Assembly (NCBI GenBank): GCA_905221605.1
Contig: CAJNDS010002097.1
Coordinates: 62,001-126,000, forward strand
Reading direction: 5' to 3'
DNA: 64,000 nt
From: Symbiodinium natans
Lineage: Eukaryota > Sar > Dinophyceae > Suessiales > Symbiodiniaceae
Shown here: piece by piece, positions 22,361 to 60,491 of the stretch
Position numbering within the stretch: position 1 is the first letter of the stretch
How the letters are laid out: every line of letters begins with the position of its first letter
Position numbers and translations under genes: made by a program
Notes under the pieces: generated by a model
The model's input: the letters and a program-made list of their open reading frames with translations, nothing else
What the model was told of the DNA's origin: nothing
Database searches by the model: none

Positions 22361-24074
22361 GAGCCCTAAACCCTAAACCCTAAACCCTAAACCCTAAACC
22401 CTTAAACCCTTAAACCCTAAACCCTAAACCCTAAACCCTAAACCCTGAACCCGTGTGAAGAGATGTGAAGAAGCCCTATGACTTATACAGTGGTCAAGCC
22501 CGAGGGGCATCTTCAGCGTGAAATTCTCCGCTTCTTCGTCCAAAAACCCTTCGAGCCTGCAGGGTGTTCGCGGTTTAGGGTTTAGGGTTTAGGGTTTAGG
22601 GTTTAGGGTTTAGGGTTTAGGCAGCTTCGGTTCAGTCGAGGGTTGAGATCGTTCTGGCTGAGTTCTTCTAGGGCTTCTAAGGCAAAAATGACTGCAACCT
22701 TTGGCTTACGGACTGTCTCCCCAGCAGGTCAAAGGTTGAAGGTTACTTGACGCCCTCAAACCCAAAGCCTAAAACCCTAAACCCTGAACCCTCAACCTTG
22801 CAAGGTTTGGGGCGCGGGATGTTGAGATTTTTGGGCTGGGGCCGGGAGCTTCACGCGCCCTCGAGGTTTAGGGCTATGTTCAAGCAGGCTTAGATGTGCC
22901 CAAGTAAGGTTGCAATATAGCCAGCTGCTACTGATGATCCCATCTCTAGCTACAGCAGCCCTAAGACCCTAAGACCCTAAAACCCTAAACCCATAATCCT
23001 CCAAGTGCCCCTGCCGAGACTCGAGCCTTCGACTGGCTCTGCGTCTGCGCTTCTGTGGCTCAGCTGAAGCTTAGATAAGATATTCTAGCTGAGCCCTAGA
23101 TACCCTGAGCCGAAGCCCTAAAGCCCCAAAACACCCTGAAGCTACATTACCACTATCTGCTTCAGCACCTCATCCCCCCCCCCCCCCCCCCCACCTCGAC
23201 AAAACAAAACAACAAATCCTTATATTGGGGGGGTTCTCGAGCCATGAGTAGTACACGCCAGCGCGACTTGGAGCGACTCAAAATCCAAGTTCGCGGCTCT
23301 GCGAGGATCGTGTCCGGCTTGGTGCGCGCGCTCACCTCCGCAACTTGCTTCTCTTAGTTGCTGAGTTCTCATAAGCCCCAAATAAGTGCAAACTTTCAGT
23401 TTTTGTATAAAACTTTCAGTTTTATAGGGGGTAATAGTATCCCAAAAAGTGTAAAAGTGTACTCACTCAGCAACGAAGTTCTCGGCTGCAGCAGAGTTTA
23501 GGGTTTGGGGGGTTTGGGGAGCCAAGACCATGGTCATAGCCTAGCCCCCGAAAAATGACGGATAATGTAGGCCGCTAACTGTGATGGTTCAGGGTTTAGG
23601 GTTTGGGGTTTAGGGTTTAGGGTTTAGGGCTTCGGAGTAACGAAGTTGGGGGAGCTTCCATCCCCCTACACGCTCCGGTATAGGTCTAGCGCTTTTCAGG
23701 GGTAAGGGTTTAGGACAACCCCATTGCAATTAGGGTGTCGGGTAAAGGCTCACGGACCTATCCAATCAGAACAGGCAAGATTTAGCTAGTTTCTCTGCTG
23801 CGAACGTGGGAATAAAAGGGCCCTCAGCCCTAAACCCTAAACGTTAAACCCCAAACCTTAAGCCGTTCACCGCACAGGCTCCTGTAGTATTTAGGGTCGA
23901 GGGTTGGGATGTCCCCCTTGTACTAACAGCTCCTCATGGGGATTATAGTCCCCCAATATAATTAAGCCCTACTAAGGACTGGCCGTATAAGGGGAACATC
24001 CCAAGTTTAGGGTTTAGGGGGGGTCAGGTTCGAGGCGTGGGCTGCCTTGGACGTAAATTGAGGGGGTTTGGGGC

Positions 24075-60491: not shown

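What the first reader, a model, noticed from the sequence alone, without database searches (positions are those of the whole stretch)
22560..60430. Telomere heptamer is the main filler of the introns
Almost every intron of the RBM25-like gene contains TTTAGGG and CCCTAAA tracts, often within 10-40 bases of both splice sites and in either orientation. Interstitial telomere-type repeats are known in many genomes, but as the main component of dozens of introns in one gene they are unusual. Possible sources include insertion by telomerase or retro-insertion at breaks, or spread within foldback elements. The transcript would contain many UUUAGGG and CCCUAAA runs able to pair with each other and to bring splice sites together.
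Basis: partly seen in the sequence, partly recalled or inferred. Interest (0 to 1): 0.85.

Follow-up and report, generated by a model that had tools for sequence, protein, structure and literature searches.

The report
Telomere repeats bracket exons by orientation
In this single-celled alga the DNA word that normally caps chromosome ends is scattered through the genes, and around the tiny coding pieces of the gene studied it almost always points one way before a piece and the other way after it, which suggests that it helps, or must not disturb, the cutting-out of introns.

Summary
The window lies in the dinoflagellate Symbiodinium natans: the annotated protein 'RBM25 [Symbiodinium natans]' lies on a 675,964-base contig, the exact length of the window's contig. 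Mapping that protein gives 44 exons and 43 introns over window 63,522-20,429, minus strand; two probable exons missing from the annotation bring this to 46 and 45.

Tracts of >=14 bp occur in 41 of 43 introns and tracts make up 27% of intron bases and 0% of exon bases, so they are a major part but not the majority. The repeat is also genome-wide: about 3.58 million overlapping exact 14-mers in 759 Mb, and 14% of 19 sampled 2-kb stretches.

Orientation near splice sites is not free. Within 60 bp of a splice site, 47 of 52 nearest tracts read TTTAGGG after the 5' splice site or CCCTAAA before the 3' splice site. Pseudo-exons in the same introns give 0.48, and 0 of 4,821 resamples reach the real value.

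Target-site duplications, predicted folding and overall base composition do not account for it. I favour selection on splicing acting on a freely spreading telomeric repeat. Polarity outside RBM25 is only partly shown.

The parts
20429..63522 (-). RBM25 gene (RRM ... E/R/K-rich ... PWI), 44 annotated exons of 21-96 bp, 43 introns of 59-2263 bp; two more exons added here
   Evidence: exact mapping of P0012 'RBM25 [Symbiodinium natans]', 642 of 644 aa
53700..53902 (-). ~0.2-kb intron made almost only of telomeric repeat: TTTAGGG tract directly followed by CCCTAAA-type tract (sense strand)
   Evidence: 89% tract by the permissive model for 53700-53891; boundaries, inferred
53594..53699 (-). probable exon missing from the annotated model (KKKCLSQDKDKKDGVPDPLSEEQLVAELRKENEA)
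   Evidence: tblastn of relative P0002, 64% identity, E 1.7e-5
53903..53928 (-). second probable exon missing from the annotated model (SRREEILKK)
   Evidence: matched by eye to SRKDEILKK of P0002 in the alignment; boundaries inferred
55782..55862 (-). RRM exon preceded by a 162-bp CCCTAAA tract (5 bp away) and followed by a 183-bp TTTAGGG tract (23 bp away)
55863..57601 (-). typical intron: TTTAGGG tract 66 bp from the 5' splice site, CCCTAAA tract 5 bp from the 3' splice site
25699..27961 (-). intron with TTTAGGG 3 bp from the 5' splice site and CCCTAAA 5 bp from the 3' splice site
45283..45432 (-). 150-bp intron, 73% tract: TTTAGGG then CCCTAAA
46252..46532 (-). exception: intron without any tract >=14 bp
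51513..51571 (-). exception: shortest intron (59 bp), no tract
57633..58113 (-). exception: intron whose last tract, 29 bp before the 3' splice site, is TTTAGGG
20450..21435 (-). exception: intron whose first tract, 16 bp from the 5' splice site, is CCCTAAA
43461..44377 (-). exception: intron whose first tract, 9 bp from the 5' splice site, is CCCTAAA
6000..16000 (.). heptamer-poor 10 kb of the same window with longer open frames
   Evidence: 3.2% tract; ORFs

Best explanation
The telomere heptamer of Symbiodinium natans spreads through the genome as short interstitial tracts. The likely source is telomerase or telomeric DNA copied in at repaired breaks, followed by slippage (inferred). Exons do not carry tracts; introns do. 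Close to splice sites one orientation is strongly preferred. TTTAGGG after the 5' splice site puts G-runs at the start of the intron. CCCTAAA before the 3' splice site gives a C/T-bearing stretch without any AG. I think splicing selects this order, either because the tracts now act as exon-bracketing signals for very small exons or because the opposite order disturbs splice-site choice. The tracts, their density and the polarity in RBM25 are shown. The effect on splicing and the source of the tracts are inferred.
For: Organism and exact exons. Polarity with the 43 annotated introns alone: 53 of 63 nearest tracts within 150 bp (p=3.4e-8), 62 of 82 at any distance. With 45 introns: within 60 bp 47 of 52 (p=1.3e-9), within 150 bp 57 of 67, any distance 66 of 86; among 40 introns with >=2 tracts the first/last order is TTTAGGG/CCCTAAA in 23 and the reverse in none. 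Pseudo-exons >=200 bp from splice sites: 0.476 of 1,857 sides concordant within 60 bp (0.431 of 3,278 within 150 bp); real exons 46 of 51 sides; 0 of 4,821 resamples as high. The polarity is lost beyond about 200 bp, as expected for a local effect. Tracts are denser within 150 bp of splice sites (35.3%) than further away (23.7%). Non-telomeric intron bases show no G/C skew of comparable size near splice sites (-0.05 to 0.02 on the 3' side, -0.17 to 0.15 on the 5' side, 50-bp bins), so the rule belongs mainly to the heptamer. In a second gene (ankyrin repeats, L023, predicted exons) 9 of 10 tracts within 150 bp upstream of exons are CCCTAAA. Genome-wide, CCCTAAA-gap-TTTAGGG pairs (exon-like order) exceed the reverse order: 46,443 vs 26,016 at 70-100 bp and 191,698 vs 138,161 at 250-280 bp.
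Against: No RNA or mutant data were available. Decoy avoidance alone would not favour TTTAGGG, which contains GT, near the 5' splice site. The non-telomeric bases of the 5' side have a slight G excess in five of the first six 50-bp bins, so part of the effect may be a general preference. In L023 the downstream side is mixed (6 TTTAGGG, 5 CCCTAAA), and in L025 a TTTAGGG tract ends about 25 bp before an apparent exon (read by eye). An exon search by codon use alone over the window and 11 loci gave only 86 concordant to 62 discordant sides (p=0.058), and stricter thresholds gave nothing (28:19, 12:11, 3:5). Beyond about 300 bp from splice sites some bins show the opposite order. Genome-wide pair counts overlap one another (several per site) and need not be exons; RF gaps near 100 bp without an annotated exon exist in RBM25 (34), at least one of them a probable missed exon.
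Confidence: 0.5

Rival explanations
1. The polarity records how introns were born. A break in coding DNA has both 3' ends extended by telomerase (TTTAGGG on each 3' end), the ends are joined head to head, and the insert TTTAGGG...CCCTAAA is then spliced out as a new intron.
For: It predicts exactly the observed order. The ~0.2-kb intron 53700-53902 is almost only TTTAGGG followed by CCCTAAA, and a 150-bp intron is 73% tract in that order. Abutting head-to-head junctions outnumber tail-to-tail ones, 41 to 19, in the sequence examined (counted from the list), and 15 to 3 at gaps under 20 bp among non-exonic gaps in RBM25.
Against: Tracts usually start tens of bp inside the intron, not at the exon edge. 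Exact head-to-head pairs at 0-20 bp number only 3,981 genome-wide, far fewer per base of gap than at 70-100 bp; the tail-to-tail count could not be obtained. The two ends of an intron look independent (23 of 40 in the favoured order, about 23.6 expected from the two margins).
Confidence: 0.2
2. Introner-type DNA transposons whose terminal inverted repeats happen to be telomeric repeat.
For: Introners with TIRs and 4-bp TSDs are reported in Symbiodinium microadriaticum (PMC9860276, passages), and introners with inverted repeats joining the two intron ends in Amoebophrya (PMC7789003, passages).
Against: Direct repeats at the 45 intron ends are no longer than the shared AG|G consensus gives (mean 3.24 vs 3.09 with shuffled acceptors; >=5 bp 0.18 vs 0.15). 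Tract length and distance from the splice site vary, with no fixed terminal sequence seen.
Confidence: 0.08
3. Intron ends pair in the pre-mRNA (UUUAGGG with CCCUAAA) and the hairpin brings the splice sites together.
For: The order at intron ends allows pairing. Amoebophrya introners are proposed to do this.
Against: Folding of 15 introns of up to 1.6 kb from the provisional chain: real introns were more stable in 5 and had closer ends in 3 (farther in 4) than with the 5'-half tracts flipped. Internal tracts of both orientations offer many other partners.
Confidence: 0.12
4. Plain genome-wide spread of an interstitial telomeric repeat with no relation to introns.
For: Millions of copies genome-wide; in 19 random 2-kb stretches mean tract content 14%, 8 over 10%.
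Against: Strong local polarity and enrichment at splice sites against pseudo-exons of the same introns; absence from exons.
Confidence: 0.1

Closest known systems
Interstitial telomeric sequences (short ITSs) of vertebrates and plants
   Same: Short, variably decayed telomeric tracts of both orientations inside chromosomes; in primates and rodents inserted during repair of double-strand breaks (PMC7215372, start of abstract in the listing).
   Different: Here about 3.6 million overlapping exact 14-mers in 759 Mb, a quarter of the intron bases of the gene studied, and orientation ordered relative to exons.
Introner elements of dinoflagellates (Amoebophrya, S. microadriaticum, Polarella)
   Same: Repeated DNA at intron ends, with inverted repeats between the 5' and 3' ends in some of them (passages).
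   Different: No TSD signal and no fixed ends here; the repeat is the telomere heptamer with free tract number and length.
Interstitial telomere-like repeats of Eimeria
   Same: Telomere-type heptamers away from chromosome ends in an alveolate genome (recalled; PMC9131526 listed for these terms, text not read).
   Different: No orientation rule around exons is known to me there (recall only).
Intronic G-run enhancers and AG-free zones before 3' splice sites
   Same: G-runs after the 5' splice site and absence of AG before the 3' splice site are known splicing features in other eukaryotes (recalled).
   Different: Here both would be supplied by one tandem repeat in its two orientations; function not tested.

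Membership tests
Interstitial telomeric sequences | Tandem telomere unit of the species at non-terminal positions | tested here: met
   TTTAGGG tracts in the window and across the genome; TTTAGGG is the reported telomere unit of Fugacium kawagutii and other dinoflagellates (PMC11453091, passage); the telomeres of S. natans itself were not examined
Interstitial telomeric sequences | Insertion at a break site shown by an empty orthologous site | not testable with these tools
   The genome search states that this genome has no relatives here
Introner elements (TIR DNA-transposon type) | Target-site duplication at the intron ends beyond the splice consensus | tested here: not met
   mean direct repeat 3.24 vs 3.09 with shuffled acceptors, 45 introns
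Introner elements (TIR DNA-transposon type) | Inverted complementary sequence at the two intron ends | tested here: inconclusive
   favoured order in 23 of 40 introns with >=2 tracts, but the ends look independent
Introner elements (TIR DNA-transposon type) | Many introns share one full-length sequence | tested here: inconclusive
   intron lengths 59-2263 bp with no shared end sequence seen; no all-against-all intron alignment was run
Hairpin-assisted splicing | Real intron ends closer when folded than with tract orientation changed | tested here: not met
   15 introns of the provisional chain

The most novel reading that the evidence does not exclude
The telomere repeat has become a genome-wide two-sided exon code in S. 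natans: CCCUAAA before and UUUAGGG after each small exon are read by the splicing machinery in place of a strong polypyrimidine tract and enhancers. New introns could then be made simply by healing a break with telomeric repeats, so that the spread of a telomeric repeat and intron gain are one process.
Probability: 0.25. Interest if true: 0.92.

Novelty: new variant of a known kind. Interest (0 to 1): 0.74.

Why it matters
If the polarity holds across the genome, it links the spread of a telomeric repeat to splicing, and it offers a testable answer to how a genome with tiny exons, mostly GC rather than GT donors in the gene studied and only a weak pyrimidine preference before AG defines its exons. 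It would also give a concrete route for intron gain. Even if it is only selection against harmful orientation, it is a clean case in which the same repeat in two orientations is sorted by position.

Tried and rejected
Rejected: RNA hairpin as the main cause; TSD-bearing introner; general base skew of intron ends as the main cause. Tried and weak: a codon-use exon finder over the window and 11 loci; exon chaining in other loci, which gave usable numbers only for L023 (at threshold 4, outside RBM25, 28 concordant of 41 sides, 15 of 21 of them from L023; C1785:1-60000 4 of 4 and 2 of 3, L015/L016 4 of 8, L019 2 of 4 and 1 of 1, L022 none; at threshold 6 L023 gives 7 of 12). A Pfam scan of the first RBM25 draft found nothing. 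A kinase family search (900 first-look candidates, 129 scored, 133 matches) listed many long open frames and was of little use here. A search for the annotated protein of the L023 gene did not show it among the 120 listed of 1,060 hits. Genome-wide counts not obtained: CCCTAAA-TTTAGGG at 0-20 bp, and both orders at 470-500 bp (service busy). Ribosomal RNA identification did not complete; the organism was settled through P0012 instead. In one search the loci L001, L009, L017 and L018 were left out of the gap statistics (window and 13 loci used, two of them without tracts); L009 was left out; L002-L008 are overlapping copies of one place and were left out. In one search L001-L008 were left out (37 sources, 265,072 bases used); there the local 14-mer ratio RF/FR was 1.67 at 70-100 bp and 0.58 at 250-280 bp, while the genome-wide ratio at 250-280 bp came out at 1.39, so that distance is not a clean control.

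Full report
Identity. The window is G000:C1785:62001-126000 of a 759.4-Mb, 2,543-contig genome; contig C1785 has 675,964 bases. A protein search with the draft gene product returned, among 31 hits, P0012, 'RBM25 [Symbiodinium natans]', on a contig of 675,964 bases. The organism is therefore Symbiodinium natans, a free-living dinoflagellate (PMC8045281, passages) whose 762-Mb assembly is listed in a review (PMC11453091, passages). TTTAGGG is the reported telomere unit of Fugacium kawagutii and other dinoflagellates (same paper).

Gene model. P0012 (644 aa) maps onto the minus strand of the window for 642 residues in 44 pieces, 63,522 down to 20,429. Splice boundaries were set by requiring the exact translation and preferring G[T/C/A]...AG ends. 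Exons are 21-96 bp and annotated introns 59-2,263 bp. Two further exons are probably missing from the annotation: 53,594-53,699 matches the relative P0002 by tblastn (64% identity, E 1.7e-5), and 53,903-53,928 matches it by eye in the alignment. With them there are 45 introns. Donors are GC in 27, GT in 12 and GA in 6 of 45; the donor was chosen by a script among equivalent positions.

The repeat. A 15-state model called tracts of each orientation. In the 43 annotated introns tracts make up 27.3% of 41,168 bp; in the exons none of 1,926 bp. Of 43 introns 41 hold a tract of >=14 bp. In the genome the 14-mer occurs 1,788,098 + 1,787,600 times (overlapping) against 257 + 280 for the reversed pattern. 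Of 19 random 2-kb stretches (20 asked for, one contig too short) the mean is 14.1%, 7 are under 1% (one of them all N) and 8 over 10%. Some stretches poorer in the repeat hold retrotransposon domains (RVT_2 in L021, 0% tract; RVT_2 and rve in L024, 8.5% tract) or an ABC protein frame (L020, 0% tract).

Polarity. Calling TTTAGGG on the sense strand '>' and CCCTAAA '<', in the 45-intron model the first tract of an intron is '>' in 33 and '<' in 10 of the 43 introns with a tract; the last is '<' in 33 and '>' in 10. Within 60 bp the favoured orientation is seen in 47 of 52 cases (p=1.3e-9), within 100 bp in 55 of 62, within 150 bp in 57 of 67, within 250 bp in 61 of 73, overall in 66 of 86. Of 40 introns with two or more tracts, 23 are '><', 10 '>>', 7 '<<' and none '<>'. 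With the 43 annotated introns alone it is 53 of 63 within 150 bp and 62 of 82 overall. By base, 30-120 bp from the 5' splice site 36-42% is TTTAGGG and 1.5-6% CCCTAAA; 30-120 bp before the 3' splice site 28-41% is CCCTAAA and 6-9% TTTAGGG; beyond about 200 bp the favoured order is lost and in some bins reversed, for example 300-390 bp from the 5' side and 420-510 bp from the 3' side. Pseudo-exons of matching length placed >=200 bp from any splice site in the same gene give 0.476 concordant sides within 60 bp (n=1,857); the 44 internal exons give 46 of 51; none of 4,821 resamples reaches this. Tract content is 35.3% within 150 bp of splice sites and 23.7% further in.

Beyond this gene. In the window and 13 loci (11 of them with tracts) adjacent CCCTAAA-TTTAGGG pairs have a narrow gap distribution (quartiles 74, 96, 124 bp; n=186) compared with TTTAGGG-CCCTAAA pairs (43, 102, 198; n=181), and RF gaps of 60-150 bp have more open frames (2.31 vs 1.43 of six) and higher GC (0.568 vs 0.512), as expected if many are exons. 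Genome-wide counts of the two orders are 46,443 vs 26,016 at 70-100 bp and 191,698 vs 138,161 at 250-280 bp. These counts overlap (several per site) and the longer distance is not a clean control. In the predicted ankyrin-repeat gene of L023 the upstream side is 9 of 10 CCCTAAA, the downstream side 6 of 11 TTTAGGG (13 exons, threshold 4); several of its introns are short with CCCTAAA as the only nearby tract. Against the rule: L025 shows a TTTAGGG tract just before an apparent exon, and a codon-use exon search over the window and 11 loci found 86 concordant against 62 discordant sides (p=0.058) with no signal at stricter thresholds. I take the rule as firmly shown in RBM25 and as likely but not proven genome-wide.

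What it is not. Direct repeats at intron ends are not longer than the AG|G consensus explains, which speaks against TSD-making introners. Non-telomeric intron bases have G/C skews of only -0.05 to 0.02 on the 3' side and -0.17 to 0.15 on the 5' side (a slight G excess in five of the first six 50-bp bins there), and the ten positions before the final AG are only mildly pyrimidine-rich (C+T in 261 of 450, summed; 49% over the last 50 non-telomeric bases), so the polarity is not mainly a general base-composition rule. AG dinucleotides are only mildly rarer near the 3' splice site (0.044-0.053 per base within 120 bp against 0.061-0.078 at 120-300 bp), so simple AG avoidance is at most a partial cause. 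Folding gave no sign of a stem joining the intron ends.

Mechanism. Shown: density, absence from exons, polarity and enrichment near splice sites in one gene of about 46 exons. Inferred: that tracts are added by telomerase or copied telomeric DNA at breaks; that splicing selection sorts their orientation; that G-runs near the 5' site and AG-free CCCTAAA near the 3' site help or at least do no harm. The main rival is that the order reflects intron birth by two-sided telomeric healing. A ~0.2-kb intron that is almost entirely TTTAGGG followed by CCCTAAA and the local excess of head-to-head junctions (41 vs 19, counted) fit it. The usual spacer between exon and tract, the low genome-wide count of exact head-to-head junctions (3,981 at 0-20 bp) and the apparent independence of the two ends do not favour it.

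Literature. Searches in the open-access library (some lists were capped, at 15 to 25 titles) showed no title or abstract start that describes telomeric repeats ordered around exons or as a main intron component in Symbiodiniaceae. The S. natans genome paper has no occurrence of 'telomer' in its main text and, in the one passage on simple repeats, says that Polarella differs from Symbiodiniaceae by them; its supplements were not read. Roy et al. 2023 (dinoflagellate introners) is known to me only through review passages and reference lists. Papers were seen as listings, abstract starts or passages only; none was read whole.

Noticed in passing
window 53594-53699 and 53903-53928: Two probable RBM25 exons are missing from the deposited S. 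natans protein P0012; the first matches the relative P0002 by tblastn, the second by eye.
   Followed up: partly
window 6000-16000: Heptamer-poor 10 kb with longer frames; by eye a SAP-like and a ubiquitin-hydrolase-like gene (about 12-16 kb, minus strand). Names are recalled motifs, not tested; one frame (8637-9701) had no Pfam match.
   Followed up: partly
window 10123-10927: GC-rich tandem repeat (periods 11, 24 and 136 bp).
   Followed up: no
L009:1381-2500: Satellite-like array alternating GGGTTTAAG and CCCTAAACCCTA, i.e. telomere-type units in both orientations within one short unit.
   Followed up: no
L022:6290-7746: About 467-bp tandem repeat, four copies of one 59-bp piece at 98-100% identity, between telomeric tracts.
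   Followed up: no
window 20450-63472: GC is the commonest intron donor in RBM25 (27 of 45), ahead of GT (12) and GA (6), with only a mild pyrimidine preference before AG.
   Followed up: partly
window introns of RBM25: 34 CCCTAAA-gap-TTTAGGG gaps without annotated exon also centre near 100 bp; one is a probable missed exon, others may be unannotated exons or reflect how tracts are spaced.
   Followed up: partly
G000:C1019:16657-35637: Tandem array of protein-kinase frames, several of them about 1.6 kb apart and of the same match score.
   Followed up: no
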